A DNA stretch of 64,000 nucleotides, from NCBI GenBank assembly GCA_036245805.1, contig BTRK01000005.1:30361469-30425468 (forward strand), given 5' to 3'. The stretch comes from Pristionchus mayeri. Its lineage: Eukaryota; Nematoda; Chromadorea; Rhabditida; Neodiplogasteridae. The position numbers and the translations under genes are program-made. Of this stretch, positions 11,131 through 63,246 are shown piece by piece (position 1 is the first letter of the stretch; each line of letters opens with the position of its first letter). The notes beneath the pieces were generated by a model. It was not told the origin of the DNA. It worked only from the letters and a program-made list of their open reading frames with translations, and ran no database searches.

Positions 11131-11410
11131 ATATATATAGGGACCACAACGAGCGATGCCGAACTATAGATATATTATCGAACCATGTTTAACCTCGCCG
11201 CTGGGGTCCAAACATGCTCATATTTTTGACCGTTTGCCGATATCTCATCTCTGAATCGCTCTAGAGCTCAATAAGCGACTCTCCTCTCTAGTCACGTAGA
11301 CAGGTCGCTTCCCTTCTAGCTCCTCCAACCCAATCTATGCTCGCTCCCATTTTTTTTTTGCCTCTCTTTATTTCTGTTGATATTTGTACCCTGTCATATT
11401 ATTAGCCATC

Positions 11411-12217
11411 ATGTACAATCCCAATCCCAAGCGCACTCGTCTTGATTTGTCCCCGACTTCTTCCCAGGACGACACGCAGTTGGTTGCTGCACCCAATGCG
11501 AGTGCTCTGATCCGAGATATTGGCGACTATCTTGGTGCGCAGTCTGAGTCTGATAAGGGTTCTCCCTTGAACATGCTGCTTCGCACTTGTGCGTTTCTGC
11601 TTGGTGACTTCGCGGCTAGATCGACTCCGTCGATCGAGGATGCCATTGAAAAGGACAAGCGTGAGCGTTCCATTGTGGTGCAGGGACTCCCTGAGTCTTG
11701 TGCGTCGACGGCCAGTGAAAGAGTGAAGGATGACTTGGCCAAAGTCACCTCCATGCTCGATTTCATTGAGCTTGAGCACCTGCCGGCCACCGTGTTCAGA
11801 ATGGGGGCGAAGCCGGACACTCATCCTCGCCTTCTCAAAGTAGTTTTTCACACCCGTATTGCCCAGACCACTACCCTCTCCCACTCTCGCGTCATCACTG
11901 ACAAGTACCCGGGTGTATTCATCCGCCCCTCCCTGACCAAAGCCGAGAGGGAGCAAGCCTACCAACTGCGGAAGCAGAAACGCGAGATGAAGAAGACAGG
12001 CAAAGATGTCATAATCTACGCGGGCGCAGTCATCGAGAGAAGCCAGTTGGATGAGAAGAAGAAGCAGCAGAAGCAGCTCCGCTCCTCCCATCCCAAGCCG
12101 AGATCCGCTTCCTCTCGCACCCCCGTGGCTCCTGACTCTGGCCAGTCTCTCTCCCATCACATTCCCTCCCTCCTCGCTCCATCCGCTCCCCTCAATACCA
12201 CCAATGACCCAAACTAG
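11411..12217 (+). CDS. LINE ORF1 protein
   Basis: An intact 268-aa frame beginning MYNPNPKRTRLDL. The central part (SIVVQGLPES to TVFRMGAK) resembles RRM-like nucleic-acid-binding cores of LINE ORF1 proteins. The C-terminal part is highly basic (KQKREMKK, DEKKKQQKQL) and Ser/Pro-rich. A related but broken ORF1 lies at 63.2-64 kb. It probably coats element RNA. Confidence 0.75.
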   Translation: MYNPNPKRTRLDLSPTSSQDDTQLVAAPNASALIRDIGDYLGAQSESDKGSPLNMLLRTCAFLLGDFAARSTPSIEDAIEKDKRERSIVVQGLPESCASTASERVKDDLAKVTSMLDFIELEHLPATVFRMGAKPDTHPRLLKVVFHTRIAQTTTLSHSRVITDKYPGVFIRPSLTKAEREQAYQLRKQKREMKKTGKDVIIYAGAVIERSQLDEKKKQQKQLRSSHPKPRSASSRTPVAPDSGQSLSHHIPSLLAPSAPLNTTNDPN

Positions 12218-15024
12218 TACTGCCCGAGCCAGCGACGATCACCCTATCATGTTACTATTATAATATCCGTTCCGTCGTCAATAAGCTCAATGCATTTCGT
12301 TCCTTCCTTATGATTACCCAACCCGACGTCGTTTTCCTAACCGAGACCTGGTTATCCAGCAAGATACCATCTTCCCTTATCATCGGATCTCTACCATATA
12401 CCCTTACTCGCTGTGATCGATCCTCCCGCGGTGGCGGAACCTGCATTCTCCGTGATTACCTCTCCTTCTCCACAGTTTCCCTTCCCTCCACCGAACATGA
12501 GATTACATGCATTGATCTATTTCACTCGAGTGCCTACGTTAGATTGTGTCTAGTCTATCGTCCCCCAAGTTATTCCCTTGCTAAGACCGATTCCCTCGTT
12601 ACTTGCCTGTCTGACATCCATGCATCATCCCCCTACCCCATCATAATATCTGGTGACTTCAATTCCGATTCACTATGTTCCAATCCTTCTCCCATTGATC
12701 GTCTATTCCGTGATTTTATTATTTCTCTTAATCTATCTCATCTTCATACATTTCCTACGCGCGGCGTTAGATGTATCGATTGGGTCTTAGGTAACGATCC
12801 CACCGTAGTCTTGGCCATTTCTGTGATTCCTCCTTTCCCTTCTTGCGATCACTCTGGTATTTCCTTCACCCTTTCGTCTCCTCAATCACCATCTCTACCT
12901 CCTCCAATTCGTGATTTTTCTCGCGTCGATTATCCAGCTCTTTCTAACCACCTTCTTACTATTGATTGGCTATCCTTATTCCGTGACTGTCCTGATATCG
13001 ACTCCGTTTATCATAATTTCTCTTCCACAATTCACGCAGCTATTGATATATTTGTCCCCTACCGTACCCCTCGCCCTCCCACTCTCTCTTATCCTAGTCA
13101 CATTATCCGCCTAATTAAACATCATGATCAATTATTCAGTAAGATTCATATTTCAACTGTTAGAACCCTTTTTGATCAATGTAGCAAGAAACTACTATTC
13201 GAGATAGACAAATGGACTCGTTACTCCACCCGTAAAAAATTAGCCCGTATCAAAGATTTGTATCGCCATATGTCTTCCCTCACCAAACCTAAGCTTTCTA
13301 TTCCTGAATTAGTCTCCCCTAATGATGTACTTAGTTTATGACAGTTTCTCCAAGTCTAATTTACTTGCTACTGAATTCGCATCTCATTTCACCTTAGATG
13401 ATGGCATTCTCCCCCCTCTTTCTTCACTACCCATCTCTCCCTCGCTCTCTCTATTCACCCTTTTCCCTCATGCAGTTTACAAAGCATTACGCAAATTGTC
13501 CCCAGGTCTTGCTCTACAGGTTATGATGGCATTCCTCAGATCATTTTCTCGAAGTGTGCACACGCTTTATCCACCCCATTAGCTGATATCTATAATCTCA
13601 GTCTCATTTCTGGGACTGTCCCATCAGCCTGGAAACATTCCCTTATCACCCCCATTCCTAAGCCGGGCAAAGATAGCAAACTACCCTCCTCATATAGACC
13701 CATCTCTATCATCTCTCCTGCTGCTAAGACCATGGAACGTCTCATCAAAGACCACCTCAATAGTCACCTTTCTCGCTTCAATATCCTCCCGTCCAATCAG
13801 CATGGTTTCCGCTCTGGTGCTAGTGTTGTTACTAATTTATTGACTTGTCATAATGATTGGACAAATTCTCACTCTAAAAAGCTTATAACTGATGTAGTTT
13901 ACATTGATTTCACTCGTGCTTTTGATGTTGTTCCCTACCCTAAATTAATAGCTCGATTATCTCATTACGGTATCCATGGTAATCTGCTATCATGGATCGA
14001 CTCCTTCCTTTCCAACCGCACTTTCTCCGTTCGTTTGCCCTCCGCCACTAGCGACCACTTCCCCATTCTCTCCGGAGTACCACAAGGTAGCGTCCTAGGA
14101 CCTATTCTCTTCTCCATCTATCTAGCTGACCTTTCTTGTTTCTTATCCAAATTTCACAACGTATCCGTCCAATGTTATGCTGATGATGTTAAGTTGTATA
14201 TCTCCTACAATAAGTCTACCAAATCTTCTATTACCTCCGAATTTCAATCTGCCCTTGACTGTCTCTTTGAATGGACCCAACTCAACCAATTGTCCCTATC
14301 TGCTTCTAAATGCTCTCATCTTCCTATTGGCTCCAAACAATCCTCCCCTCGCTACAATATTAATTCCATTCAGTTACCCCTCGTGAATAACGTCCGTGAT
14401 CTAGGTGTCCAAGTCCGCTCTGACCTCAAGAATTCTTGTTCTATTAAAACCCGTGCTCAGAAAGCCACTTCTAAGTTATTCCTGCTCCTTAAAGCCCTCC
14501 CATTCAACTGCCCCACCATCCTCCTTCGTAGTTACAAAGCATATGTCCTACCCCTCCTTGACTTTGCATCCCCCTTTTGGAATCCACATTACATATCTGA
14601 CATTGAGACTCTTGAAAAAGTTCAACATATTTTCACCCGGCAAGTATTCTATCGTTGTTTCCCCTCCCCTTCCTATCCTCTTTCCCTACCTTCTTATTCG
14701 GATCGCTTGAAAACTCTTGGCCTGCGCCCGCTTACTGAGAGGAGAGTCATAGGAGATCTTTGTATGACTCATATGATTATGACTGGTTCTAATATCGTCC
14801 CTCGTTCATCATTCTACGTCTACAAACCCCAGCGAGATCGTACCTCTTCTTTTGGTATTAACATTGAAACGACAACTAGCACCGCCAGATTCCACTCTTT
14901 CCCTGTTCGAACCTCCCGATGGTATTCTCAACTTCCCGATGTTATTCGCACTGCCCCCAACATCCGAGTATTTAAGCGCCGACTGGAAAGCCACCCCATA
15001 ATCGCTGACCTCTCTCATCTTTAA
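12208..15024 (+). pseudogene. LINE ORF2: endonuclease and reverse transcriptase with two frameshifts
   Basis: The frame opens after a TGA at 12205-12207 with an APE-type endonuclease start (NIRSVVNKLNAF). TETWLS, RGGGTCIL and SGDFNSD motifs follow, then a linker. The reverse transcriptase carries SSYRPISI, QHGFRSG, DFTRAFD, SGVPQGSVLGP and the catalytic YADD (within QCYADDVKLY). The C terminus ends at 15024. Reading shifts frame near 13335 and returns near 13520, so a complete protein is not encoded even though the palm motifs are intact. This suggests a fairly recent inactivation. Clade assignment to CR1 is by motif impression. Confidence 0.88.
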
Positions 15025-26758: not shown

Positions 26759-27300
26759 GAATTTTGTGTAAATCCCACGTATTCCATTTATTCCTTTATT
26801 TGATAATTTGAATCATGATCGCCTTTGATAATTATTGTATTTATTTTGCTTACATTTCGAATTACTTTTACCTTTCATTTTGGGCTATTTTGTTGCCCAA
26901 TGAAGTGATAAATGTTAACTTGTAAGTGCACATGTTCATGCCAGGATTTTTATGAGGTATTGATTAGTGAATCACTAATAGTTATCATGAAAAAGTCATA
27001 TTTAGAACCATCAGGAATACGTTCACATCTTCATTGAAAGGCCTAATGCCACAAGATGAGTAGCACTTTCGCAAGAATTGTTGATTAGACAGCACAGTCT
27101 TTCATAACTCGTGCTACGTATTTTTCAGTATACACATGTTGTACATGTTGCATTTTATTCATTAAAATCCAACATGAGTAAACAATGGTGCGAGAGATAA
27201 TGCATATTCGGAAAGTTTAAGCGGATTGGAAAAGGGTGAAATCATACTGATATTAAGAAACATTAATCGGAACTATACAAATCTGGAGAATAATCGGGGT
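26759..27300. other. convergent intergenic region
   Basis: It holds the 3' ends of two convergent genes. A short palindrome GATTAGTGAATCACTAATA lies at about 26962-26980. No gene is seen. Confidence 0.35.
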
Positions 27301-30300
27301 TCACATGTTGTATTCTCCATCGGACTCCATCTTCTCATGCTCGATCTGCACGAGATCGTTCTCGTATGCATACTTCTCAACAGCATCGATCTTCTTCACT
27401 CTGTAGTTTCCCACTTGGGCTTCAACAGCATTCACATTGGTAGGCATAATGAGAGAAACCTTGAGACCCCAGTTGATGAAGTACTGGAAAGAAAAATTTT
27501 AGTAAAAGCATATTATCAATGCGGAAATAACTTCAAATTCCTTACCTTTGCCATGTCCTCCATTTGGCCGAGGGAGATCTTGGTTTCCTTATCTCTGATA
27601 TGGAGGTATCGGCACTTTCTGCTCAGGATCTCACGGATGTCCGAGAGGTAGAGAGAACCCTTGCTAAGGGGACCTCCGATCCATATCGAATCAGTGAGAT
27701 TAGCCAATTGAACGAGGAAGGAGATCAAGTCTGAAAAAAACAATAGCTAGAATAATACTGAGGATGAGAAATTAGAGAGTAGCGGGTAAAAATACTTTGT
27801 TAGTGCGTAAGCCCGATAAAGACTCACCCTTTGTCGGCTCCAGTCTCTCGACTCCGACCTTGGAAGGTCTTGCGATTCTCACGAACTCGAGCCAATGCGC
27901 GCTGAATTTATGCAATTATTACTAGCTACTGAAGTTTTAATTAATATTTTTGAAGTCATGATCTGCCGAAACTCACAATTGATCGGCGGAATATTCGGGT
28001 TTCTGGCTGATTGTTAGCTGCTTCACAGTTGCACATTCGAGAAAATATGAAATTGAGAGCAGTCCTTCCTCGACTTTGACGTAATCAAAGTCAGTGCGAA
28101 TGGCAAGTGGCTTGAGCCAGTCGAGGAAAGTCGCCCTCTTGTCAGAATCAACGTCGAAACTGATGCAACGCTGGAAATTATTGATGATGAATACAATCGG
28201 AATGAGCAAGAAAGACTAAATAGTGAAATAACTCTTACATCGTGAGTGGTAAGTTTGTCGACGGATAAGTTGAGAACAGAGAAGGAAGCACGGAGATATT
28301 CAAGCCAATGGAAGTGATCCACTTGCGAAGCGAAGTAAAAAGTCATTCTATCATCGTTTGAGAGAGGAAGGGTCTTCAAAGAGTGAATTACACATTTGCT
28401 ATGTTCTTTTTTGTTTACTACCTCAACTCGGAAAGACGAAACTTGGATGCGCTGGTAAGGCGCAATTCTCTTGAGAATAGCCTGCATACGCCTGAAGTCG
28501 TTCGCCTTTTCCTGCTTCTGGAAGTTCTTCAGCTCGTCAATGGCAGACACCATCAGGGCGTCGATCATTGCTCCCTCTGAGTGGGTCGTCGACTCAGTTG
28601 CAGCAGGCTCTCCTTGCTGCAGTTCCTCAGTATGCGACTCGGTCGCAAGAGTGACTGTGAGATGGACACAGGGAGGCTGGCTGGAACTGCAAATAAGAGT
28701 GTTACAAGGGTTCATATGATAGGGATGACTCTAGTAACACACCTTCTCTTTGCCTGATCAATCGCCTGGAAGATATCGTGCGAAGTCTCCACAAGGACAG
28801 TGAAATCATCAACTGAAAGTTGAGAAGTAAATATCAATAGATAAATATTTTTCACGACACGAAAAAAGAGAGTAGCGCGAGACTAACAAGTTTCGTAAGA
28901 ATACGATTGCTAAGATGGTGATTAAACGAACTAGTTCATAATAAGAATATGCTTCTCAACGAACCGTTCCAGTAGAGTTTGAAAGAGTCCTTCTGTATAA
29001 TCTTGGCTACACTCGCCTTGACCTCATTAAAAATCTGCTCATCGCGATCAATATGGGCGAATCTGGAACAATTTTGCATGCGCAATTGTGAGCAATAATT
29101 TAGAAGGGTGTAATTATTATTTAAATTACCTGTGCTTCCTCCCATTGAATTCGAGCTTGAAATGCACAGCCGTGTTTGATCTGAAAGATAAAATATTTGA
29201 GCTAAGTAATTTGTTGTTTTAAAAGCATGTGATTATTAAAACTCACTATCTTCTCAATGAGCAAGTATTATGGAATATAATTGTTTACCTCGCACTCTCC
29301 ACTCTCCTTCCGAAGCCCAGTGCGAATGTAGAGTGCTCAATCTGCAATAACTATGCTGAGATCTTCCCAATTAGTCATTATTATTTAAAACTCTCAAATA
29401 AATATGCAGTACCAAAATATAAGAAGGAGTAGTACAGTACCTTAAGCTGTGTGACAGCGCTGTTCTTATACGCACGAACAGCGTAGAATTCCGTGTAGGG
29501 AAGAGTGAAACGGAGGGATGAGGAAGAGGGAGAAGATCCCTCGGAGAAAAAGCTCTTCACGATGGTGAGCACCGGACGATACTTGCACATTGGAACCAGG
29601 CAGATCTACAGAATAAGTGATATTTTATGATTCCCAAAATGGGTTGTGTGGTAGCTAATTGTTGCCAACTCATAGATTTTCTTGGAAATTCGAGTGATCA
29701 AAATGGAAACTAACATCGGACGACCAGCCACTCTCGTTGTCGACGAGCTTCACCTTATTGAAACGAACAGGAGAGGTCATCCATTCCGACCCCTTCATTA
29801 CTCCATCCTGAAATGTGCTCGATTAATGGTGAGCCTTATTTCGATTGGATATTGCAACTTACATGATGAGCAACAGATCTGGCTTCATTTCTCTCTTTCA
29901 CTTCACCTGCTGGTACCCATTGTTTGCCTACGTACTTGTACCTGAAAGAACGAAGAAATCACTCAACGCATTATTCGGTTTCCCTAATTTTGCAATCATA
30001 CCTGATACCATCGACTCTCTCCATGTGGAGAAAGAGCGAGTAGTCTTCATTCTCGTCCAATCCCTCGATCACGAAATCCAGTGTGGGGAACATCTTCCTG
30101 AAATCATTTGATTTATGATGTAATCTAGACTTTTGATGGAGTACGAAGTGGTGTGAAGATGAGACTAACCTTCCACTCTGTGTGATCACCATCTCTGTTG
30201 GGCAGTTGTTGAACTGCTGCCAGAGAGTCTCATTGGCAAGCAAAACTTTCACTGCTTTAGCTCCACTGTTCGTATCACATTCCTGTCTGAATCCTTTAGC

Positions 30301-31558
30301 GAACGGATTATAGTCGATCTAAAACAAATCAATTGTTGGTAGCATAGTAAAATAACAGTAATCATTCAGAGCATAAGGATGATTGTTTCTAATAGTACCT
30401 TGAGCTGAGTGATTGCGTTGTTCAAATATGAGTGAACTGCGATGAATTCCGTGAAGGGTAGAGTGAATCGCTGGAATGTGATTGAAGTTAATTACCAAAA
30501 TTAGAGCAAATGTTTTTATCGTAAGTCCAAAGTTCAAATCTTGACAAAGTGTTCGCCCCCCAGAATATTTTCTAATGCGCCAGTCCACCTATTGGAAAAA
30601 AGGCTAATCAAAGTAGGAACGAACCTGCAGCATATCATCGGAGTAGAAGGGGTCAGAGAAGTGGCACTTCATGATGGTGATTACGGGACGATACTTGCAC
30701 ATCGGAATGAGAGGGATCTGAATAGGCGGAGTAAATCGACTTTTTAGAAAAATGTGTTTAGGATATGGCATCCGTTCGGTACAGTAAACATTCACTTCCC
30801 TACTTATGCAGTTTTTTGCAAAGATCAACATCCTTCCTTCATACAGCTTAATAATAATAACAGCGAAATGCGTGAAGGGAAACTGACATTTCCGGATCCA
30901 TTTTCAGTTAGCTTCACTCTGTGGAAGGAGACGGGCGTAGACATCCAGGCCGATCCCTTCATTGCTCCCGCCTGAAGGAAATGTCGTTCAGAGATGATAT
31001 GTCTAGGGTTCAGTTAATGAAATGAGAGGTTACATACATGATGGGGAACCATCTTGCCCTCCTTGATCTCGACCGTCTCTCCAGTGGGCTCCCAGTTGCC
31101 ATCGACGAACTTGTATCTAAAGTTGAACGACGGTTAGGGAGGCCATTGAATGGAGCAATTATGATCGTTTAATGCATCGGGTCATAGAATAGATGCAGCG
31201 GTCTTACCTGTTCTCATCGACTCTCTCCATGTGGAGGAAGATCGCGTAGACTTGGTTCTCGTCCAGTCCCTCGATCATGCACTGGAGCGAAGGGAACATC
31301 CGCCTGGAAAGACTTTTATCACTCAACATTAATGAAGGCTTTGCCCTTATTATGTTTCTAGAACGATATTTCCCACCATAACATTTTTCAGTTCGATAAA
31401 AACAGAAGGAAACAGTGGTACGGATTGGGCGTAAGTGGAGGGAAAGCATAAACCGACCGCCCACTTTGCGTGATGACCATCTCGGTGGTTTCGTTGTTGA
31501 ATTGACGCCAGATTGACTCATCGGAGAGTCGAACAGTCACTGATTCAGTGAACGGCAT
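27301..31558 (-). CDS. tandem T-box / PB1 fusion protein
   Basis: Twenty exons read down from 31558: 31458-31558, 31208-31303, 31038-31116, 30888-30971, 30625-30717, 30399-30470, 30170-30318, 30002-30097, 29863-29941, 29715-29807, 29441-29605, 29289-29341, 29130-29180, 28965-29062, 28743-28812, 28239-28686, 27977-28170, 27828-27901, 27546-27730, 27301-27483 (2463 nt, 820 aa). Residues about 5-190 form a T-box: TEMVITQSGRRMFP, IEGLDENQVYAIFLHMERVD, GSAWMSTPVSFHRVKLTENG, MCKYRPVITI, FTEFIAVHSYLNNAITQLKI, NPFAKGFR. A second T-box (about 195-385) repeats these elements. A PB1 domain (about 390-480) follows with HFKLEFNGRKHRF and YWNVDDFTVLVETSHDI. The C-terminal 340 residues match the non-T-box genes at 33.3, 38.1 and 46.3 kb (LISFLVQLANLTDSIWIGG, EILSRKCRYLHIRDKETKIS). 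It is probably a nuclear DNA-binding regulator. Start chosen at 31558, eight bases after an acceptor (CCTCATTCAG). Confidence 0.88.
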
Positions 31559-31844
31559 ACTCGAGTCTGAATGAGGTAAACGTACGATCTAATTCATTTC
31601 AGCGAGGTGGTCAAATGATATTCATACAACTGATACAACATTGAATGATGAGCTAGATTAGGTATTTGTGCATGAACGGACTATCTTCCACTAGATATGC
31701 GGGGGGGAGGGAATTTTTTTTTTTAATTTTAAAAATTTGGGAGGCCAAACGATGAAGGATGAAATGAAGGATAATGCTGGGAATAGGCGGGGGGGGGGGG
31801 GGGGGTTACAGGGAGAGAAGGAGCTAATGCCAGATCAGGAGATT

Positions 31845-33262: not shown

Positions 33263-36155
33263 TTAGAGTCTCTTCTCCACTTGGGATTCCATTCCGACGT
33301 GCTCGATGGCGACGAGATCATTGTCGTACGAGAACTTCTTGAGAGCATCGATCTTCTTCAGTCTGTAGTCTCCCACTTGAGCCTCGACGTCCTTCGCATT
33401 CGTAGGCATCACGAGAGACACCTTGAGGCCCCAGTCGCGGAAGTACTGAAAAAAAACATATGCTTTACATAAGAGGCAACAGGAACCAGGTCGGAGTCAC
33501 AATCCAGGAAATACAATAAATGGCGAATAAGTCGACCTTTCTTGGAATCATCGGACAAGAAAATGCGACCCCATGAAATCAGTTGTGTTTCCCCTGATAT
33601 TATTCAGGAGCGCGTGAACTCTTACCGTAGCCATATCCTCCATTTGGCCGATCGATATCTTAGTTTTCTTGTCTCTCACGCAGAGACAGCGACACTTTCT
33701 GCTGAGGAGTTCTCGGATGTCCCAGAGAGCGAGCGAGTCCTTGGCCCATCCTCCGATCCACATCGAATCCACCATGGAGGCCACTTCGAGCAGAAAATTG
33801 CGCACATCTGAATCAATTCATTAACTCAATTCTGATTGTGACTCTTATGTAAACATGCGATGTTAAACTAACCCTTAGTTACTTCCATTCTCTCGAAGCT
33901 GACCTTTGAAGGCCTCGCCACTCTGATGAACTCTAGCCATTGAGCACTGAAATAGTCACTTCATTGCATATTCAGCTATATCTAACTGATGTGAATGATG
34001 CAAATATTATGAAAACATTAAAAAATGGAAACTCACAACTGTTCCGTGGCATCATTAGCTTTCTGTGTGATCCTGATCTGCTTAACCATCGCTGGTTCCA
34101 GAAATTCGGCCAGTGCTCCCATGATCTCAGGGGATTCCTCGGTGTAAACATCCGTGAAATCAGTGCGAGAAGCGAGAGGACGAAGGAATTCGAGCAGAGA
34201 AGGTACTGCCTCTGTAGGCATCGACAAGAACTAAAGAATAGATACAATGACATCACTTAACCAGGAGAAGTCGTCAAAATGGCGACTACTGCATAATCTT
34301 GAACCTTGTTGGCACTGTCGAAGCAGGGGCGATTGATCTCTCCGAACTGCGGATAGCAAGCGATGAATCCTCCCCACATCGAACTGCTTTCGTCGTTGGA
34401 GAGACGAAGACTCACCACCGTCTCAGAAGTATAAGGGATGTGCTGAAAATCGATCATTGATTCGTAAGCGCTGCTTTATTTCCATGAGCAAACCACTGGA
34501 AAGAAACTAGGCGCTTGCCTGAATGTTGAGCTGAGCCTCCATGCGATACTTGAATTTATCCGCAATAGCCAGCAGTCGGTTCATTTCATACTGCTTATCC
34601 ATATGATCCGGAGACTGAAAAAAGGAGGTGTTGAGGAGCACATTTTGGAAGTAATATCCGATCTTATGCTATATTTTAGAAAGCGCTTCCTCCGTCTTTA
34701 ACCCTTACCAAAACAAGGATAAAAAGGAACTCGAAAAGGTACAAAACTACTTCACACGTCGTTTATTTATGCGCTGTTTTGATCATACTTGGGAAAATAT
34801 GCCTACCGCTTTCGACCGCAATAAGAAACTAGGCATTGAGTCCTTAGAGAAGCGTAGAATAACGACTGATGTAAGAGTAGCCACAAATCTCATACGAGGC
34901 AAATATAGAATATCCAACCGAAAACAACATTATTTCAAAATTTACCACACGCGAAACGGCATGAACTTCAACAACCCTGGTTCGAATCATAACTACAGAC
35001 ACAATAGCTTCTTTCCAAGAGCGGCAAGACTTTTAGTAAATGCAGAGAATGAAACCAGTTCCCCTGAGTAGATCCTCCTGACTTCATGACCCTTTTATCC
35101 AGTCATTAACTATTGATTCTCATCGTCATTAACTTTCCTGTTCTATTTTAAATGTTATCTCACGTTATTTCGTACGAAATAGTATAAATATATATATATA
35201 TTTTAATACTGCCCAAATGCATAGTTTCCTATCGCTTCCCTGACATCCTTTAATGGACAGCCAAACTAGCACTTTTCCCATGCATTCATTTGTTCCGTAT
35301 ACATATTTTAACGTCATATTTGTCTCAAACAATGCCTGGTAACTATGCTGTTTAATAATGTCTGGGGAAATCCCTCTTTAATCTCTCTCACATGCTTCGC
35401 TACCGGCATCGTGTTGGCATCGGGTTTCTCTGTAGGTGCAACACCCCTTGCAGATAATTGGATAAGCTGCATCAGCATCTGTTGCAGCTCATTGGCAGTG
35501 CGAAGGAAAGTGGCATCGGTTTCTACACGAAGATTGATGCACTGAGGTTTTCCCGAGCTGCAAAGAGGACAATAACGGTCTGACGCACTGACGAGATTGT
35601 ACCTCATCTGAGTGAACCAGAGAACCGCAGCGGAGAGATCAGCCTCCGACTCCAGAATACAGTCATCGATGCCATCTAGAAGGAATGGATAGAAGAAGTA
35701 AACGAAAGCAATTCCACTATGGATGTAGGTACTATAGATGGCTATTCGGAGCAGAATTCCGATTTCGCGATCCCTCCCTCGCATATTGCGAAATTTGAGG
35801 AGGGGAGGATTACGATACCGCAATTCTGCTCCAAATAGCCTACCCTACTAGGTACTATAGGTTAGATGAGCACCATAAACACCAGCTTTACCCAGTATTT
35901 TCATTGTAAACTCGCCACATCTAATACCGCAATGAACTAACCATTCCAGGTAAGATCGAAATCCTCTTCCTTGACGATACCAGTGACTCTCTTCTTGAGA
36001 TCCTCGAAGAGTTGATCACCGCGAGTCGAGAATGCGAATCTGCAGAGATTTTGTCAGTATGATACCTATTTGGCCATTCATAACTGTCGTAAGTAATGAA
36101 AATATTACCGATGTTTCTTTCCATTGAATGCGAGCTTGAAGTGAACCAAGGTCAT
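33263..36155 (-). CDS. PB1 domain plus conserved C-terminal region protein
   Basis: Ten exons read down from 36155: 36109-36155, 35942-36039, 35603-35675, 35344-35557, 34519-34614, 34305-34442, 34037-34230, 33873-33946, 33626-33807, 33263-33445 (1299 nt, 432 aa). PB1 at about residues 1-85: a basic first strand (VHFKLAFNGKKHRF), helix DQLFEDLKKRVTGIV and acidic loop TWNDGIDDCILESEADL. The C-terminal region contains PSLLEFLRPLASRTDF, WLEFIRVARPSKVSFERM and LLSRKCRCLCVRDKKTKIS, shared with the T-box fusion and the 38.1 and 46.3 kb genes. The intron after 34519 starts GC (CAG then GCAAGC), as at the same site at 38.9 kb. A truncated LINE copy sits in the intron at 34.7-35.2 kb. The ATG lies four bases after a CATTTCAG acceptor, consistent with trans-splicing. 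Confidence 0.87.
34676..35205 (+). mobile_element. 5'-truncated LINE copy
   Basis: The frame at 34769-35071 (LNRNKK-like linker, EKRRITTDVRVATNLIRGKY and SFFPRAARLL) is nearly identical to the C terminus of the LINE reverse transcriptase at 60797-61993, but on the other strand. The 3' end shares the palindrome TATTTCGTACGAAATA and a TA-repeat tail. It lies antisense within an intron of the PB1 gene. Confidence 0.88.
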
Positions 36156-38110: not shown

Positions 38111-39979
38111 ATGGCCAGAACTATGAATATCGCGCATTTCAAGCTCGCCTTCAACGGAAAGAATCATCGGTACTACATTTACCTTTATTATACAACGCTT
38201 ATCGTATTGTATTTCGCATTTCAATATTATGATCTACTAACATATTTTTACAGCTTTGCTGAAACCTGCGAAAACGATAAGCTTTACGAAGAGGTGAAGG
38301 GAAGGGTGGAAAAGATCGTGAACGAGGACTCCTTCAAGCTCTACTGGAACGGTTCGTTCGTTCGTTTTTTTCGATTTTTCTCATCTTGAGTGTTCTCTCT
38401 TAATCAAAATCATAAATTCAGATGGCGAATCGAACGTTCTTCTCGAGACTGCGGAAGATCTCGCGACTGCGATTGACTTTGCCAAGAATAGGTGAGTTCA
38501 TTCAATATCACATATTGAATCCGTCCAAGCAAAGGCATATTTCAGTTCGAGACAGCCTCCGTGTGTTTATCTCACGGTCGCCTCAATGAGAGCCGAGAAG
38601 GAGCAACAGCAGCCAGCTTCTAATGACAACAATGCTGCTGAATTCGTTACTCGAGTGGGTTACAGGACATAGAATTTTCAACATGATATTTTTTCGCACA
38701 AAATACTGATATCATGAATACTATCATAATCAACTCCCATAATCCAGATTGTGCGACCCAAGAGAATCAATATGGACCAAATGATGGACATCGCGATTGA
38801 AATGAGCATGGACACCATGGTTCCTCTTGTCGTTTCTTCGCTTCGTTCACAGGCGAGAAAACTATTATATTTTCAATATGAACTGTTCAACTTCAGCACA
38901 ATTCCCTGACCAACGAGACAACGCTGACCCTCTGCTTCCATTCTCCCCAGGACTATTCGATGTGGACTAAGTGCATGGAGATTTGTCTCGCCGACCTCGG
39001 CGTTCACAAAGATCGTCTCACCACCAAAAGCCACTATGTGAGTAAATTCAAATTCCATCTCATGCCAGGTAAACATAAACCGAATTCCACAGTAATAATA
39101 AGGATACAACGAGATGCAAGTATTCATTTATTGCAGAGAAGTGCTTCAGTTGTTCTGAACAAGGACATGGCTCTCGCTCTGCTCGATTACCTCGAACCTC
39201 TGGCCTCCAGAAATGTCTTCCAGCACGTTAAGATCGAAGAAACTGAGGAGAAAATGCGCGCATTCACGCTCTTTCTCGAACTTTCCACAGTGGAGCAGAT
39301 CACCATCTGCCAGAAACCGGATACCAATCTGTTGTGAGTCTCACATTTTAGATTTTTATCCTTAAATCTAAAATGACTAACACGAGGTAAAAAAATAAGC
39401 AAAATCATGTTTATTTCAGCGCTCCTTGGCTCGAATTCGTACGAAGAGTGAAGCCATCGAAGGTTCGAGTCCAGAGACTGAAGCCTACCAAGGGTTAGTT
39501 AGAAGAACATACTTTTCATGTGAAATAAACATGAGTATTTTCAGATCTGATTTCCTTCCTCGTTCAATTGGCTGATCTGACTCATTCGATGTGGATCGGA
39601 GGTCTCCTTAGCAAGGGTTCTCTCTACCTCTCGGACATCCGTGAGATCCTCAGCAGAAAGTGCCGATACCTCCACATCAGAGACAAGGAAACCAAGATCT
39701 CGCTCTCCCAGATGGAGGACATGGCCAGGGTATGTAGTTCAAATCTATTTTAAAACCATTTTGGAAATATTTTGATAATTTATAGTATTTCATTTTCAGT
39801 ACTTCATCAACTGGGGTCTCATGGTGTCTCTCGTCATCCCTTCTTCCGTTCTCAAAGTGGACACTGAAGTTGGGGTGTACAGAGTGAAGAAGGCGGAAGG
39901 ACCCAAGTTCGAGTACGAGAAGGATCTCGTCGTGATCGAACACGAAGACATCTACCCGAAAGCGGAAGACAAGATCTAA
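38111..39979 (+). CDS. PB1 domain plus conserved C-terminal region protein
   Basis: Ten exons: 38111-38169, 38254-38351, 38422-38491, 38546-38654, 38748-38852, 38897-39037, 39137-39333, 39420-39493, 39545-39729, 39800-39979 (1218 nt, 405 aa). The PB1 domain (residues about 5-95) has HFKLAFNGKNHRF with the basic residues expected of a type II face, and YWNDGESNVLLETAEDLATA as the acidic loop, so both faces appear present. The C-terminal region has LLDYLEPLASRNVFQHVKI, WLEFVRRVKPSKVRVQRLKP, MWIGGLLSKGSLYLSDIREI and a final DTEVGVYRVKKAEG block. The intron at 38853 begins GC, not GT. The acceptor TTATTACAG lies four bases before the ATG. Function is unknown; PB1 implies protein-protein pairing. 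Confidence 0.88.
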
Positions 39980-41124: not shown

Positions 41125-42002
41125 ATGGCCAGAACAATGAATATCGTTCATTTCAAGCTCGCTTTCCATGGAAAGAATCATCGGTACTACTTTTACTTTA
41201 TTATGTACCACTTTTTTCATTTCTTTCATTCAATAATATGATATGCAAACATTTTTTGCAGCTTCGCTGAAACTTGCGAAAACGATAACTTCTACGAGGA
41301 GGTAATGGGAAGGGTGGCAAAGATAGTCAAGGAGGACTCCTTCAAACTTTACTGGAACGGTTCGTTTCTATATTTATTTTCGATTCTTTTGAATGATCTC
41401 TCTTTATTCATATCCCAATCAACACAACTCAGATGGCGAATTGAATTTTCTTCTGGGGACTGCTGAAGATCTCGCTACTGCGATTGACTTTGCGAAGAAC
41501 AGGTGTGCTACCGTACTTTGAAATATTGAATGATCATTTAAAAAAGGAATATTTTTCAGTTCGAGACAGCCTCCATGTGTCTATCTCACTGTCGCCTCGA
41601 CTGCTGCAGAAGAATCGAAGGTCGTCGAGAAGGCAGAAGTGCAGCAGTCATCTTCTGATGTCAACGCTGCAGCAGAATTCACCACTAGAGTAAGTTAAAA
41701 GATCAGCATGACCTACATTTCAGAGAACAGCCTGATGTCGTTAAATACCAAATTATCGCCCTGTTATTCAAGAAACTTTTTCAGATTGTGCGACCCAAGA
41801 GAATCAATATGGACCAAATGATGGACATCGCGATTGAAATGAGCATGGACACCATGGTTCCTCTTGTCGTTTCTTCGCTTCGTTCACAGGCGAGAAAACT
41901 ATTATATTTTCAATATGAACTGTTCAACTTCAGCACAATTCCCTGAGACAAGGAAACCAAAGTCTCGCTCTCCCAGATGGAGGACATGGCCAGGGTATGT
42001 AG
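41125..42002 (+). pseudogene. truncated PB1 gene copy with an internal deletion
   Basis: Exons 41125-41183, 41262-41359, 41433-41502, 41560-41689 and 41785-41889 correspond one to one with the first five exons of the gene at 38.1 kb, including the GC donor. The sixth exon starts identically (12 bases) and then jumps into the middle of the penultimate exon of the parent. About 775 bp are missing and the frame is shifted, so reading stops at a TAG at 42000-42002 (176 aa). The former last exon follows out of frame (42065-42244). An intact PB1 domain could still be produced. From 41785 to about 42375 the sequence is almost identical to the parent, whereas the first four exons are more diverged. 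Confidence 0.85.
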
Positions 42003-42244
42003 TTCAAATCTATTTTAAAACCATTTTGGAAATATTTTGATAATTTATAGTATTTCATTTTCAGTACTTCATCAACTGGGGTCTCATGGTGTCTCTCGTC
42101 ATCCCTTCTTCCGTTCTCAAAGTGGACACTGAAGTTGGGGTGTACAGAGTGAAGAAGGCGGAAGGACCCAAGTTCGAGTACGAGAAGGATCTCGTCGTGA
42201 TCGAACACGAAGACATCTACCCGAAAGCGGAAGACAAGATCTAA

Positions 42245-42930: not shown

Positions 42931-43397
42931 TACAGTACATGCTAATCGCCTTGCCCATATGCGGCCGCGGCGGCTCGCGGCGGCCCGCGGATTCCGCGGA
43001 TCGATTTTGTGGGAAGCATGCAATTTTTCACCATTCGATTTTTTGATTTTCAAATTATCCATAAAATTTCGCATCGGATGGACTATTCATTCATATTTAA
43101 AAAAAAATATAAATCGATATTTTGAATGCGACAATGCTTCAACCTACCGTAATCTAAGTTGCGAAAGCGACAGGCAAAGTGATATCGCCAACTGCGATTA
43201 CGGAAAAATATCGATTTATATATTTTTTAAAATATGAATGAATAGTCCATCCGATGCGAAATTTTATGGAGAATTTGAAAATCAAAAAATCGAATAGTGA
43301 AAAATTGCATGTTTCCCGCAAAATCGATCCGCGGAATCCGCGGGCCGCCGCGGGCCGCCGCGGCCGCATATGGGCAAGGCGATTAACATGTACTGTA
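42931..43397. repeat. foldback element with GC-rich ends
   Basis: TACAGTACATG(C/T)TAATCGCC begins the left arm and its complement ends the right arm. Next inside is an unusually GC-rich block (GCGGCCGCGGCGGC), followed by AT-rich arms with CATCGGATGGACTATTCATT and its complement. The loop near 43130-43190 is unpaired. No coding capacity. Confidence 0.9.
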
Positions 43398-43719
43398 ACA
43401 CTATACCGTGCGAATGCGCTCAATAACGATGGCATTATTCACAATCAAAGTCTTCGTTTTCCGAATCTCGCCATACTTTTGAATTGATCGTATTTCCAAG
43501 GAGAACTATGAGAGCGGCAAAAGTCGAGGACTATTGAAAAGCCTTTTCCATGGGCATATTACGGTTCCCTGTACGAAATCATTGACACGGAATGCCCGCT
43601 TAAAATTTGGAGCAAAATTCCAAAATATTCTAATTAGAAAATTCATACTTTGTGTTGCGCGTAATTGTTTCCTACAAAAGTAAATCATAATCATTTCAGA
43701 AACGAGTTCGGAGTTTTGA
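43398..43719. other. intergenic, no gene recognised
   Basis: Spacer between two foldback elements. Only short frames without recognisable motifs. Confidence 0.35.
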
Positions 43720-46124
43720 TGCAAAAAATATTCATGACATTTCTTCTCATATGGGCATTTGATTTTCTTGTGCAGTCCCAAGGTTTGGAGGTTATGTAAT
43801 GCACTTTAAATTCGACTTTTCAATGACGATTTCAGAATGAAAGGATCCCATCCATAGTTGTATGGACGGATGTCGGCATTTCTTGGAACGTTCACATGTG
43901 GTTTTCAAACAGGCTGCGGGGTGAAAATTGCACTAAACAGTGCAAAGTATTGCCCAGGTGACGCAACCCTCTTCGGCCCTTTATTATAAGTATACGATTA
44001 ATGTTTTAATTATCCAATTCAGAAAAGAGATGAAGAATGCGTTGGATCACGATGCAATCATCTTTAATTCACGAGAGATCGATTTTTCTGATTTGCCTGA
44101 ATCAAGAAATGTCGATCAGCTTTATTTGCTCTTCTCTCTCGAGCCTCCCTGGCTTCGATGGGATTGGACATCTTTCTTCGGCGGAAGGGTTAGAACTAGA
44201 GACCTTCTACTTGGTTGAAATTCGACTGACGAAAAGTGGGAATCATATGCCTCACTCCGTCAGCCTGCTCACTAGCCAGTCGACTAACGAAATAGTCGAC
44301 TGACCACACATTATTAAGACCCGTGCAAAAGCAAAAGCACATTTCGCGCTCCTTTTCAAATTCAAAAAGCAGCGAATTTGCTCTTGCACGGAATTTTAGC
44401 TTACTGTATCGAGTTTTAATATGAACCAAGTGTGAAACCTAGAACAATTGGATCTCTAAAAACGTTTCCATTTCATAATGTTTGTGAAACACAAATGATC
44501 CTAATCTGTTTCGAAGCAAGGAAGTGGTCGATCTATTCATGTTTCATAGAAAATTAAAGTATTAGGTGCATTTTTCGGTTTAATCCGTGGACTGCCTGGC
44601 GCTTAATACTGTGACCAATCGGCTTGTCATTTCACCACTGGATTGACGGTCTTTAGTCCGGACTCAGCATTTTCTTTAGAAGAGTAGGTGATGCATCCTC
44701 GATCTTGCTTCTGAATGAAGTTTATAGTCGTATTTCAGTTTCCTAAACATTTCTTCAACGGAACTATAAGCTACTCAAAGTTAAACAATTACACGTTCGA
44801 CTATGATGTTCGGGTATCTGGAGAACTGAAAGTGGTGGGCGTGATTCTTGTTTCTTTAATAATTCAACTTCAGACCCCGGAATTGGTCCGAAACAAAAAG
44901 AACTCGGTCCTTGCGGTAGTATCAAATTGTTATTCGAGATCCGAAAGAGAAGAATTAATCAATGAACTGCGCGATCAAATCAATATTACTCTGCGGTATC
45001 AGAGGTTATCATACATCTCTTAAAGAACATTTATTTTAGTGGAAATTGCTATGGCAGACAAATATCTAATGAGGAGAAATTGATTCTGATAAGTTAGTGT
45101 AACACGGATCCCTAGCAGTGCTGTCCACGCCGCCGGCGACCTCGAGACCATGAACCCCGGGTCATGGATTTTTTGGCAGGTGGTGGGAAAACCACAGTCG
45201 TTGAAGATAGACCTAAGGTACCATAACCGTCGTCATGTACATTGACACGACTGGTATTTGTCGGCTACCGTAACCCGCACTACCGTAACCTGAGTATCGA
45301 TAATAAAATTATTTTGAAATATCCTTGCTTCGAAACAGATTAGGATCATTTGTGTTTCACAAACATTATGAAATGGAAACGTTTTTAGAGACCCAATTGT
45401 TCTAGGTTTCACACTTGGTTCATATTAAAACTCGATACAGTAAGCTAAAATTCCGTGCAAGAGCAAATTCGCTGCTTTTTGAATTTGAAAAGGAGCGCGA
45501 AATGTGCTTTTGCTTTTGCACGGGTCTTAATAATGTGTGGTCAGTCGACTATTTCGTTAGTCGACTGGCTAGTGAGCAGGCTGACGGAGTGAGGCATATG
45601 ATTCCCACTTTTCGTCAGTCGAATTTCAACCAAGTAGAAGGTCTCTAGTTCTAACCCTTCCGCCGAAGAAAGATGTCCAATCCCATCGAAGCCAGGGAGG
45701 CTCGAGAGAGAAGAGCAAATAAAGCTGATCGACATTTCTTGATTCAGGCAAATCAGAAAAATCGATCTCTCGTGAATTAAAGATGATTGCATCGTGATCC
45801 AACGCATTCTTCATCTCTTTTCTGAATTGGATAATTAAAACATTAATCGTATACTTATAATAAAGGGCCGAAGAGGGTTGCGTCACCTGGGCAATACTTT
45901 GCACTGTTTAGTGCAATTTTCACCCCGCAGCCTGTTTGAAAACCACATGTGAACGTTCCAAGAAATGCCGACATCCGTCCATACAACTATGGATGGGATC
46001 CTTTCATTCTGAAATCGTCATTGAAAAGTCGAATTTAAAGTGCATTACATAACCTCCAAACCTTGGGACTGCACAAGAAAATCAAATGCCCATATGAGAA
46101 GAAATGTCATGAATATTTTTTGCA
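43720..46124. repeat. very large palindrome with arms of about 805 bp
   Basis: The left arm (43720 to about 44525) and right arm (about 45322-46124) are essentially identical in inverted orientation: open frames of 92, 88 and 77 codons occur as exact copies on opposite strands. The unpaired centre (about 44526-45321) contains sequence that may be part of the neighbouring PB1-family gene. None of the arm frames has recognisable homology, so I do not call them genes. Confidence 0.92.
44715..45023 (+). other. possible N-terminal fragment of the divergent PB1-family gene
   Basis: After an ATTTCAG acceptor, KHFFNGTISYS resembles the first PB1 strand (HFKLAFNGKNHR). Further on, SRSEREELINELRDQINITL resembles the PB1 helix exon of the family. 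It sits in the unpaired centre of the palindrome, 1.3 kb upstream of the first secure exon of the gene at 46.3 kb. The similarity is weak and no full exon set could be built. Confidence 0.25.
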
Positions 46125-46259
46125 TATCATGGTGGAATAGGCATATTAGGATAGGCAGAGTGTGTTGCTTCCGCCCGTTAACGAGTACTACAACATCTTG
46201 CTATTTGTCGCATTCTCCCCCTATCCCGATTTCGTGCAGGACGAGCGTTAGGTTTTCAG

Positions 46260-49200
46260 AAAATAATTAGCTTCAAAATTGAGATATCGCCCAAATTCAA
46301 AAAGCATGATCTTATTCATGCCCATAGGGACACACTAGGCACAAAAAGAGAGTCATGTGACTATTTGGCAGAACGCTTGCGGTCTCTAGGCATAATTCCG
46401 CCTTTTAGATTGGAAGAAATATTTCATTCTCATGATGTGGAGCTAACCAAACAAGACAACGAATCGACTCTAGTAAGTAGTATATATTTTATATGATTGT
46501 TGAATATGAGTTAACTCATTTTTCGATATGAACATTTCAGTTATTTAGATATATTTTCAGATGATTCAAGAAATTCTTTCACGGGCTAGAGAACAAGATA
46601 GGGAGCAAATAGAACAACTGATTGATAATGTAGAGAGCATAATGGACGAGCTATTCACAGTTAAATTCATTAATGTAACTTCATCGGTAAATTATTCTCA
46701 ATCACTATCTTCATAAACAAATAACAAGTATTGAATTGTTCAGATTTCGTTCGATGAACACGACACTCGCATATCGTTATCTTTCGACAATTCTCTCGAT
46801 CAAATCACGTGGAGAAGATGCATTGCTTCGGCACTGTCCATACTCGATTTCCCCGATCATTGCCTACATACTTCCAATAAGGTTCGCATGCCATATTCTA
46901 CAACTAGTCCGGCTGCTTACCCGTCCTAGCGATCTCAAAAATTAAAATCATAGATCTGACGTAGGGAATAATAATTGACAGAATGCTAATTATTGATTGG
47001 ACTACGGTAGTTGAGCCAATGCTAATTATTGATTGATATACGGTAATGGACCGATCTTTTCTTACGTCCTCAGTCTCTCCCCTACCGATTTCGCAATCCG
47101 GTCACACGGAACTGCGCTTTATATATAGGTATAGATTATCGCATTTTCAAAAATCGTTTTCCAGCACGACGATAATGCGCTCGGTATTTCTCATCGATAT
47201 GAAATTCTTAACGTCACAATTGAGCAGCTGAAATTGCTGGTTCCGTATCTGAAATCGTTAGCCAAAATTACAAAGTTTCGAAGTGTAACCATAAACCATG
47301 AAAATGATGAAATAATTCGCTTATGCGGGGATCTTTTGGAAGATTCCAATACCGAGAGAGTTTCCATTAGTCCTCGCGGAGCTCATGATGGAACGAAGAA
47401 TAAGGTCGAATTCGAGAATTTGTAAGTATATTACGCAGGTTTATTTGAGTTGTGCGGTTTATAGCCATCCATGGGTCTACCTAATCTTCAAAACCAAGCC
47501 AGCGCAACTACATTACTCTCGAGTCGGGCTCACGCAAGGTTGGTTGTGATAAATTGAATGACAAATCGATGTTCTACTTCTTGTCTGAGGTTTTGAAGTG
47601 CAATTAACTAATACGTGCGTCATAAATCGATCCTTTGAATTAAGATTTAGAGCACTTACAGGTTTAATCGATTTCCTTGCAAAAGCGTCCGAGTGTGTTA
47701 CAACTATCAAAATTTACTGTGGAATCACAGTAGAGCAAATTCCTATTCCGATGTGGCTCGTGAAACAAATCATGAAAAACAAATGTAGAGACCTGCAAAT
47801 CGTCGATTGGGTAACCAAAGTTTCGCTCGATCACGTAGAAGATCTGGTTCAGGTATGCAGTATCTGCTATACAGTATTGCCGGAAAGTATTCGCCCACTT
47901 TTAATCTCTGCCATAGTTTTTCAATCAAACGAGTTATCGTGCTCAAATTTTTACTGGAGATTGTAAATTTAATGGGAAATATTTTGAGGTTATCGCAAAT
48001 TTACAGTAGCGCTCATAAGTCATGGGACACTTTTTGCTTTTATTGTAACTTTTTGCCCAGGAAACTCATCATTCTGGCACTAAGGTAGGATATGCCAAAT
48101 CCATTGGAGATTATGCTCATGATATTGGAGTATTACGCAATAGCCTAGTTATTGCGTAGTGATGACGCAATCAAAGTGTACTTTTTCAAAACGCCATTAT
48201 TCTTACGTGGATTTTTTCCTACTCGCCAAACTTTCTGAGGTTGGAGATATGGCTGAGTACTACCAAGAATATTTTTTGAAGTTGCTGCGCGAACGCAACT
48301 TTAAGGCTGAAATGTCGTGACTCATCTTCTAGTGAAGCCAGAGACTCGTTCAACACAGCAAAATGATCCTTAAAATATCTCCAAATGATCCTGAATGTTT
48401 GGTATCGATTGGTCATTATTTGCCCTCAGGGTAAGAGAAAGTTACTTTTTCGGATGGCCCATATTTGGACGCTTACCATTTCAAGAGTGAATTTGCATAA
48501 AATGTGGCTCCAGGTCAGGAAGGTGCAAAAACCGTGAAATAATCGATTCCTAACTTTTGGTAGACTTGGGTTAGCTTTCCGGGCCGTGGTGAGCGATTTA
48601 CCGACGCACGATCTCTTCACGCCGCTCTCTAACCGCTCTCTCGCCCGGTAGAGGCAAAGCGCGCGCTCATTTTGCTGTTTTGAACGAGCTTCACTAGAAG
48701 CTGAGTTATGGCATTTCAACCTCAAAGTTGCAGCAGCTGCAGCAACACGTTGCGATGTCGCAGCAACTTGTTGTCTGGGTAGTACATGGATGGTTCTAGA
48801 CACTAAGAAAGTTACAGTAGCGAGCATAATTCTATCACATTGGTGTTTTTCAAATATAACTTCCATCAACCTCATTCGATCTTCACAATTTTTTGGGTGC
48901 ACTAATATTTTATGATTACCAATCGAACCATCTATCTGATGAGATGAACACGGCAGTGTACGGTAGGTCACTGAGTAATCGATATTTCTCTCAAAATCGC
49001 ATTTTTCACTAAAATGTATGCCAAAAATCGAGAAAAATGTAATACAAATATTAATAAGCAGGTTCGAAAGCGCATCTTTCGGGCTTTCGAATGCACCTTT
49101 TGAATTAATTGGGAATCGATTATTTAGTTGCGGTAGATCAATTCAAACTACAGTACTTTTTATTTCATTTCTGGCTATAACTTTAGTACTAAAGAAGTAA

Positions 49201-63210: not shown

Positions 63211-63246
63211 GTGAGTGTCTGTCTGAGTGATGTTTGGGCCGGTGAA

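What the first reader, a model, noticed from the sequence alone, without database searches (positions are those of the whole stretch)
27301..31558. Two tandem T-box domains fused to a PB1 domain and a lineage-type C-terminal region
The sequence shows one splice-consistent, 20-exon, 820-codon model that joins two complete T-boxes to a PB1 domain and the C-terminal region of neighbouring non-T-box genes. T-box factors normally carry one DNA-binding domain, and I know of no T-box/PB1 fusion. Two T-boxes could bind paired half-sites within one chain, and PB1 would let the factor polymerise or recruit PB1 partners. This is the strongest candidate for an undescribed system here.
Basis: partly seen in the sequence, partly recalled or inferred. 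Interest (0 to 1): 0.93.

Follow-up and report, generated by a model that had tools for sequence, protein, structure and literature searches.

The report
Double T-box–PB1 fusion nematode gene
A nematode gene strings together two copies of a developmental DNA-binding domain (T-box) and a protein-docking domain (PB1) that its neighbour genes use on its own; the sequence suggests the fusion arose when the docking gene lost its own start codon, but no RNA evidence is available yet.

Summary
Confirmed as sequence. A minus-strand, 20-exon, 820-codon gene (31558-27301) encodes two full-length T-boxes (Pfam E 3e-114, two stretches), a PB1 domain and a lineage-restricted C-terminal region (CT). The end of T-box 1 and start of T-box 2 share one exon, so the tandem is no splice guess. 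Neighbours B, C and broken D are PB1-CT genes without T-box. In all three the ATG lies 4 nt after an AG acceptor-like site; the fusion's homologous exon 13 keeps acceptor, spacing and frame but has AAC for ATG and no Met in PB1. The only AATAAA on that strand follows the CT stop. PB1-CT thus seems reachable only through T-box exons. The genome carries SL1, so I infer that a former trans-splice acceptor became a cis acceptor. A lone T-box gene, T1, is the closest relative found; the fused T-boxes are sisters. Both diverge from T1 and 16 references in helix 3, differently; PB1 keeps its lysine but has an eroded acidic face, so docking onto neighbours' PB1s looks likelier than self-polymerisation. 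New architecture of a known family; no transcript seen.

The parts
27301..31558 (-). fusion gene A, 20 exons, 820 codons plus stop (T-box, T-box, PB1, CT)
   Evidence: splice model; Pfam
31559..31570 (-). tcag + 8-nt leader before the ATG: acceptor-like site, possible trans-splice acceptor of the fusion mRNA
   Evidence: read; inference
30283..31558 (-). T-box 1 (exon 1 to the first part of exon 7; residues 9-187 by Pfam)
30170..30318 (-). exon 7: holds the end of T-box 1 (IDYNPFAKGFR) and the start of T-box 2 (VKVLLANETLWQQFNN...) in one open frame
29289..30255 (-). T-box 2 (from about residue 197 in exon 7 to exon 12); exon 11 (165 nt) equals exons 5+6 of T-box 1 (93+72), so one intron is missing here
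29181..29288 (-). intron 12, junction T-box 2 to PB1: GAG|gtaaac (donor rank 9 of 43 from the weakest) ... tctttcag (acceptor rank 38 of 43); no AATAAA; reading through the donor meets a stop at once
29130..29180 (-). exon 13, homologous to the first coding exon of the PB1-CT genes: same acceptor-to-HFK distance as B (16 nt), start codon replaced by AAC
28656..29180 (-). PB1 domain (exons 13-15 and first part of exon 16)
27301..28655 (-). CT region (exons 16-20), lineage-restricted
27154..27159 (-). AATAAA, the only one on the minus strand between 31600 and 26900
33263..36155 (-). gene B: PB1-CT, 10 exons, 416 aa, no T-box; tttcag|GACG ATG; one GC-AG intron in the model
38111..39979 (+). gene C: PB1-CT, 10 exons, 405 aa, no T-box; attacag|AGAA ATG; one GC-AG intron and one weak donor (after exon 4) in the model
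41125..42244 (+). gene D: broken recent copy of C (internal deletion, frame lost; my model stops after 196 codons); attaaag|ATCA ATG

Best explanation
It is one nematode gene that encodes a chimeric T-box factor. Shown from sequence: two full-length, selectively constrained T-boxes in tandem, joined inside one exon; then a PB1 domain and CT region homologous to neighbouring stand-alone PB1-CT genes; the PB1 part has no start codon of its own. Inferred origin: a lone T-box gene (relative of T1, on another contig) came to lie 5' of a PB1-CT gene, was duplicated in tandem (last exon fused in frame to first exon), its terminal exon was cut back and gained a donor, and splicing captured the acceptor of the PB1-CT gene's first exon, probably a former SL1 trans-splice acceptor; the old ATG then decayed. 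Inferred mechanism: the two T-boxes, diverged from each other in the DNA-reading helix 3, bind a composite site with two different halves, and the PB1 uses its retained lysine face to dock the acidic face of other PB1 proteins (B, C or the L025 protein), bringing them to DNA or being regulated by them, similar in logic to plant ARF-Aux/IAA. Probability that the gene makes the fused protein about 0.85; that both T-boxes bind DNA about 0.6; that PB1 docks in one direction about 0.5.
For: 20-exon in-frame model; Pfam T-box x2 and PB1; exon 7 spans both T-boxes; PB1 by profile against PDB and by the bridging relative L025; start codon 4 nt after the acceptor-like AG in 3 of 3 of B, C, D, while A has AAC there and no in-frame ATG back to the stop at 29218; in a scan of 29640-29181 no ATG exon starting in intron 12 could feed exon 13, and the only 3 candidates all start at one ATG in T-box 2 exon 11; single AATAAA, after CT, and none of the 7 hexamers tested between 29628 and 28420; dN/dS 0.16-0.30; T1 has its six introns at the phases of T-box 1's six, five of which T-box 2 keeps; tree TB1+TB2 0.878, with T1 1.000; 479 SL1-like sites followed by GT, control 0; genome-wide, C's protein matches only the window, C5:30.66 Mb and C3:16.98 Mb (22 matches, E 0.01, lower bound); helix 3 and OPCA comparison; precedent that PB1 raises DNA affinity of an ARF and carries a lysine face and an OPCA face (passages of PMC12041631; of PMC8200828).
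Against: No transcript seen. PB1 scores of A, B and C are each a little below the Pfam cut-off and D gives no PB1 hit. Junction donor GAG|gtaaac is on the weak side (9th lowest of 43), and intron retention would give a T-box-only protein ending SAR-stop. One-base variants of AATAAA do occur inside the gene (AATGAA at 29889 and 29799, CATAAA at 29629). TB2 has lost conserved helix-C residues and both fused T-boxes keep fewer conserved columns than T1 (51 and 47 against 55 of 69), so DNA binding may be altered or lost. No PB1 compared here, L025 included, has all four acidic OPCA positions, so the proposed acidic partners are themselves imperfect. Support for the TB1+TB2 grouping is moderate (0.878), and TB2 lacks one intron of TB1 and T1. 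That B, C and D are trans-spliced is inferred from position only. A second species with the fusion was not found (searches with C and with the PB1-CT profile gave no relative).
Confidence: 0.8

Rival explanations
1. Two adjacent genes: a double T-box gene ending after exon 12 (or in intron 12) and a separate PB1-CT gene, perhaps in an operon with trans-splicing at exon 13.
For: Exon 13's acceptor is homologous to the start acceptors of B, C and D; reading through the exon 12 donor gives a stop at once; the genome has SL1.
Against: A trans-spliced mRNA starting at exon 13 has no ATG before exon 16, beyond PB1, and no ATG exon in intron 12 can feed it; none of 7 poly(A)-signal hexamers between 29628 and 28420, that is from T-box 2's exon 11 to beyond PB1; phases of exons 12 and 13 fit; PB1 under constraint against B and C.
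Confidence: 0.1
2. The fusion is a decaying or untranslated chimera, a by-product of duplications in an unstable cluster.
For: The same cluster holds the broken copy D; no second species could be examined; OPCA and helix-C residues are eroded.
Against: 820 codons over 20 exons without a lesion; dN/dS 0.20 between T-boxes and 0.16-0.28 for A against B and C, although these values average over the time before the fusion.
Confidence: 0.1
3. The fused protein exists but its T-boxes no longer read DNA: they act as a scaffold or decoy, with PB1-CT as the working part.
For: Helix 3 changed in both T-boxes, helix C of TB2 changed.
Against: The motif GR[RK]MFP and both helix-C phenylalanines are kept in both (their role as contacts is recalled); in C. 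elegans, T-boxes with altered contact residues bind new motifs instead of none (PMC4434323, passages).
Confidence: 0.25
4. Assembly artefact joining unrelated stretches.
For: None beyond the fact that there is a single genome.
Against: No N in the window; the four contigs seen are 44.6-50.3 Mb long; the PB1-CT part lies among its own paralogues; splice phases fit at the junction.
Confidence: 0.02

Closest known systems
T-box transcription factors (Brachyury, TBX, nematode-specific TBX of C. elegans)
   Same: Two PF00907 domains; best solved relatives TBX5, Brachyury, TBX3, TBX21; a nematode expansion with changed contact residues and new motifs is known (PMC4434323, passages).
   Different: Two T-boxes in one chain and PB1-CT behind them. 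In the 120 listed database hits (of 2406) the top one, P0001 (turbot), has two T-boxes and reads, by my eye and recall, as tbx2- and tbx4-like neighbours run together.
Lone T-box gene T1 of the same genome (L013:8856-7221, minus)
   Same: 57% identity to TB1 and 55% to TB2; its six introns have the phases of T-box 1's six; T-box 2 keeps five of them.
   Different: One T-box, a Ser/Pro-rich tail in the last exon, unchanged helix 3 core and helix C; no PB1 or CT match in its locus.
PB1-CT genes B, C and D of the window
   Same: Same PB1 (and, for B and C, CT), same splice phases for A's exons 13-16 and 17-20 against B and C.
   Different: Start at PB1 with their own ATG; no T-box; B and C have introns where A's exon 16 is continuous.
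Plant ARF and NLP factors (DNA-binding domain plus PB1)
   Same: Works-like comparison: DNA-binding domain followed by PB1 that can pair with PB1 of partner proteins (passages of PMC12041631 and PMC8200828).
   Different: Unrelated DNA-binding domain, plants, C-terminal PB1; here PB1 is internal and lacks a full OPCA motif. Not a homologue.

Membership tests
T-box factor | full-length T-box (PF00907) above curated cut-off | tested here: met
   E 3e-114, 379.6 bits (cut-off 26), two stretches, best one profile 1-182 of 182
T-box factor | conserved T-box core columns | tested here: inconclusive
   TB1 51, TB2 47, T1 55 of 69 columns conserved in at least 15 of 16 reference rows
T-box factor | canonical DNA-contact helices 3 and C | tested here: not met
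   helix 3 changed in TB1 and TB2; helix C kept in TB1, changed in TB2 except both Phe; that these helices contact DNA is from PMC4434323 (passage), which stretch they are is recalled. Fails for canonical binding, not for T-box homology
T-box factor | sequence-specific DNA binding | not testable with these tools
   needs an assay
PB1 domain protein | PB1 profile match | tested here: met
   A 20.8 bits (whole) or 22.2 (tail alone), E 3.7e-4 and 1.4e-4, just below the cut-off 23.6; profile to MEKK3 and Bem1 PB1; relative L025 26.4 bits, above the cut-off
PB1 domain protein | conserved lysine of strand 1 | tested here: met
   HFK in 5 of 5: A, B, C, D, L025; aligned to the known lysine by eye
PB1 domain protein | acidic OPCA motif DX(D/E)XDXnD | tested here: not met
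   A: V, D, T, late D, 2 of 4; B, C, D and L025 each 3 of 4; motif from PMC12041631 (passage)
PB1 domain protein | ubiquitin-like fold | not tested
   a spliced protein is not given letter for letter by the window, so it was not handed to the folding tool
nematode SL1 trans-spliced gene | SL1 genes in the genome | tested here: met
   275 + 204 matches with up to 1 mismatch, control 0 + 0
nematode SL1 trans-spliced gene | spliced leader on B, C, D or A mRNA | not testable with these tools
   needs RNA reads

The most novel reading that the evidence does not exclude
An animal counterpart of the plant ARF-Aux/IAA arrangement: a T-box factor with two different DNA specificities in one chain that reads a composite site and, through a one-sided PB1, recruits or is gated by stand-alone PB1-CT proteins made from the same gene cluster; born by conversion of a trans-splice acceptor into a cis acceptor.
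Probability: 0.25. Interest if true: 0.85.

Novelty: new variant of a known kind. Interest (0 to 1): 0.62.

Why it matters
T-box factors are ancient developmental regulators normally described with one DNA-binding domain (general knowledge). A two-T-box chain with different contact helices would be a natural test of how T-box specificity and spacing evolve, and PB1 on an animal DNA-binding factor would be a new way to assemble it. The exon 13 comparison also offers an unusually legible case of gene fusion: the captured acceptor, its 4-nt leader now read as codons, and the former start codon are all still identifiable against three paralogues.

Tried and rejected
Split into two genes: considered first and marked down because exon 13 has lost its ATG and no ATG exon in intron 12 can feed it. 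Chance or non-coding: rejected. PB1 as a false Pfam hit: rejected on the PDB profile and L025. A published precedent: five searches listed no paper on a protein with two T-boxes or on a T-box/PB1 fusion; three of them found no paper at all, one search found one on Tbrain, and the 12 are, by title and start of abstract, about T-box riboswitches or other matters; the library is open-access only, so this is weak. Relatives elsewhere: C protein, none at E 1e-3 of 4411 candidates; PB1-CT profile, none at E 10 of 5788; the full-length search was filled by T-box proteins (2406 at E 1e-3, only the best 120 listed), so a T-box/PB1 protein further down is not excluded. CT by Pfam: nothing above a cut-off. 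Function of CT: unknown; I only note CT-like stretches without a PB1 match on C3. tRNA and Rfam scans of the window: nothing. Structure prediction was not run. Own-genome searches with the T-box pair and with PF00564 did not complete. Busy answers: T-box family, answered later; protein C, answered later; T-box pair; PF00564. So the count of PB1 genes, and a search for another double T-box with these T-boxes as query, are missing.
Full report
Observation. The window lies in an unnamed 290.8 Mb genome of 73 contigs (C5:30361469-30425468). The genome holds 479 matches (up to 1 mismatch) to the nematode SL1 leader followed by GT, with none for the control pattern, so I take it for a nematode that trans-splices. 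On the minus strand I rebuilt gene A: 20 exons from 31558 to 27301, 820 codons plus stop, 19 introns all GT-AG, phases consistent. Pfam finds T-box in two stretches (whole protein E 3e-114) and PB1 at residues 392-470 (20.8 bits, cut-off 23.6).

The tandem T-box. Exon 7 (30318-30170) runs without interruption from the end of T-box 1 (NPFAKGFR) into the start of T-box 2, so the join is in the DNA. T-boxes 1 and 2 are 55-58% identical, by method, with dN/dS 0.20 and 84 of 180 nucleotide changes at codon position 3. The genome has T-box matches at eight places in all (21 exon-wise matches at E 1e-3, a lower bound; I counted the places). The best lone relative, T1 (L013), has seven exons; the phases of its six introns equal those of T-box 1's six. 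T-box 2 keeps five of the six: its exon 11 (165 nt) equals exons 5+6 of T-box 1 and of T1 (93+72), so one intron is missing there. T1 ends in a 414-nt last exon with a Ser/Pro-rich tail. In a tree with 16 reference T-box rows, TB1 and TB2 are sisters (0.878) and T1 is next (1.000). The tandem duplication therefore seems to be internal to the fusion lineage; the other T-box genes of this genome were not put in the tree.

The PB1-CT part. B (33263-36155, minus), C (38111-39979, plus) and D (41125-42244, plus, broken) are PB1-CT genes without T-box; the only T-box matches in the window, with TB1 and TB2 as queries, are those of A. The models of B and C each hold one GC-AG intron, and one donor of C is weak. 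PB1 is below the cut-off in single-sequence Pfam scans (A tail 22.2, B 22.7, C 19.9, D none). A profile of the four gives MEKK3 PB1 (E 3e-4) and then Bem1 (E 0.014) as the best PDB matches. A coiled-coil-like gene (by eye) about 260 kb from D, L025, carries a related PB1 that passes the Pfam cut-off at 26.4 bits. Two protein-database searches show no relative of PB1-CT. Within the genome, C's protein matches only the window, L025 (PB1) and C3:16.98 Mb (CT-like, L026) at E 0.01 (22 matches, 36 candidates scored; counts are lower bounds). No PB1 or CT match at E 0.01 was found in the six loci that hold the other seven T-box places; L011 ends about 100 bases after its T-box, and there only the genome-wide search speaks.

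The junction. In B, C and D the ATG follows an acceptor-like AG by exactly 4 nt (GACG, AGAA, ATCA; D's site reads aaag). A's exon 13 begins after tctttcag with ATCA, then AAC where the ATG stands in B; the distance to the shared HFK codons equals that of B (16 nt). There is no in-frame ATG upstream to the stop at 29218, none in exons 13-15, and in a scan of 29640-29181 no ATG exon in intron 12 that could splice into exon 13; the only three candidates all start from one ATG inside T-box 2 exon 11. The single AATAAA on the minus strand between 31600 and 26900 is at 27159, after the CT stop; of six variant hexamers also scanned, some lie inside the gene (such as AATGAA at 29889 and 29799, CATAAA at 29629), none between 29628 and 28420. 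The junction acceptor ranks 38th of 43 and the donor 9th of 43 among introns of A, B, C and T1, from weakest to strongest. Reading past the donor meets a stop at once, so intron retention could give a T-box-only protein; this is the main loophole. I infer that splicing of a T-box pre-mRNA captured a PB1-CT trans-splice acceptor, after which the start codon decayed.

How it may work. In T-boxes, helix 3 and the 3-10 helix C are held to set specificity, and C. elegans T-boxes with changed residues bind new motifs (PMC4434323, passages seen); which stretch is which helix is recalled. Here AVTAYQN is AVHSYLN in TB1 and AVRAYKN in TB2; T1 and 13 of 16 reference rows have AVTAYQN, and P0080 (SVTAYQN), P0117 (GVTAYQN) and P0001b (SVTSYQN) are the others. 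NPFAKGFR is kept in TB1, T1 and 16 of 16 reference rows but is STFALGFG in TB2, with both phenylalanines kept. Two different half-sites are thus likelier than a repeat of one. PB1 domains pair by a lysine on one face and an acidic OPCA motif on the other (PMC12041631 passages; PMC8200828 passages). A keeps the lysine but only 2 of the 4 acidic OPCA positions that I scored, against 3 of 4 in each of B, C, D and L025; none has all four. One-sided docking onto B, C or L025 PB1 is therefore my preferred reading over self-polymerisation. In a plant ARF, PB1 stabilises the dimer and raises DNA affinity (PMC12041631 passage), which is a works-like comparison only. The functional content of this paragraph is inference.

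Novelty. Searches for two T-box domains, T-box with PB1, and related phrases listed no precedent, in an open-access library only. Among the 120 best database proteins none lists both T-box and PB1 Pfam domains, but 2406 passed and only 120 were shown. P0001, with two T-boxes, looks like tbx2- and tbx4-like genes run together (my reading, gene order recalled). I file A as a T-box protein of new architecture, not as a canonical T-box binder, and not as an ARF-like factor.

Limits. One genome, no RNA, no second species; dN/dS averages over time before the fusion; PB1 type is judged from motif positions aligned by eye; two own-genome searches did not complete.

Noticed in passing
38745-38909 / 41782-41946; 39680-39979 / 41945-42244: C and D are a recent tandem duplication (99-100% identical stretches, others 76-89%); D has lost the middle of CT and its frame.
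   Followed up: partly
27525-27737 and 39538-39750: Exon 19 of A and its counterpart in C are 89% identical in DNA and 90% in protein although PB1-CT is about 53% identical overall, and the genes lie in opposite orientation: looks like a gene conversion tract.
   Followed up: partly
43719-44522 and 45322-46125: 804-nt inverted repeat, 100% complementary, with 799 nt between the arms, possibly a young DNA transposon; further pairs at 48973-49418 / 49555-50000 (95%) and 42931-43123 / 43205-43397 (96%).
   Followed up: no
11381-15021 and 60800-63998: Two non-LTR-retroposon-like units (endonuclease- and reverse-transcriptase-like frames) and a mariner-like transposase frame at 52669-53724, all judged by eye.
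   Followed up: no
47135-47852: Plus-strand exons near the PB1-CT cluster; 47643-47852 has weak similarity to CT (E 4e-4), the rest by eye: a diverged relative.
   Followed up: partly
L025:4087-4530: Coiled-coil-like protein (by eye) with a PB1 near its C-terminus, about 260 kb from gene D; candidate PB1 partner of the fusion.
   Followed up: partly
L013:2401-3499 and 7221-8856: Two T-box places about 4 kb apart in the same direction on C3; the second is T1, the closest relative found of the fused T-boxes.
   Followed up: partly
58236-60269: Collagen gene exons on the minus strand (Pfam collagen only in 59196-59639; the rest by eye), consistent with a nematode cuticle collagen.
   Followed up: no
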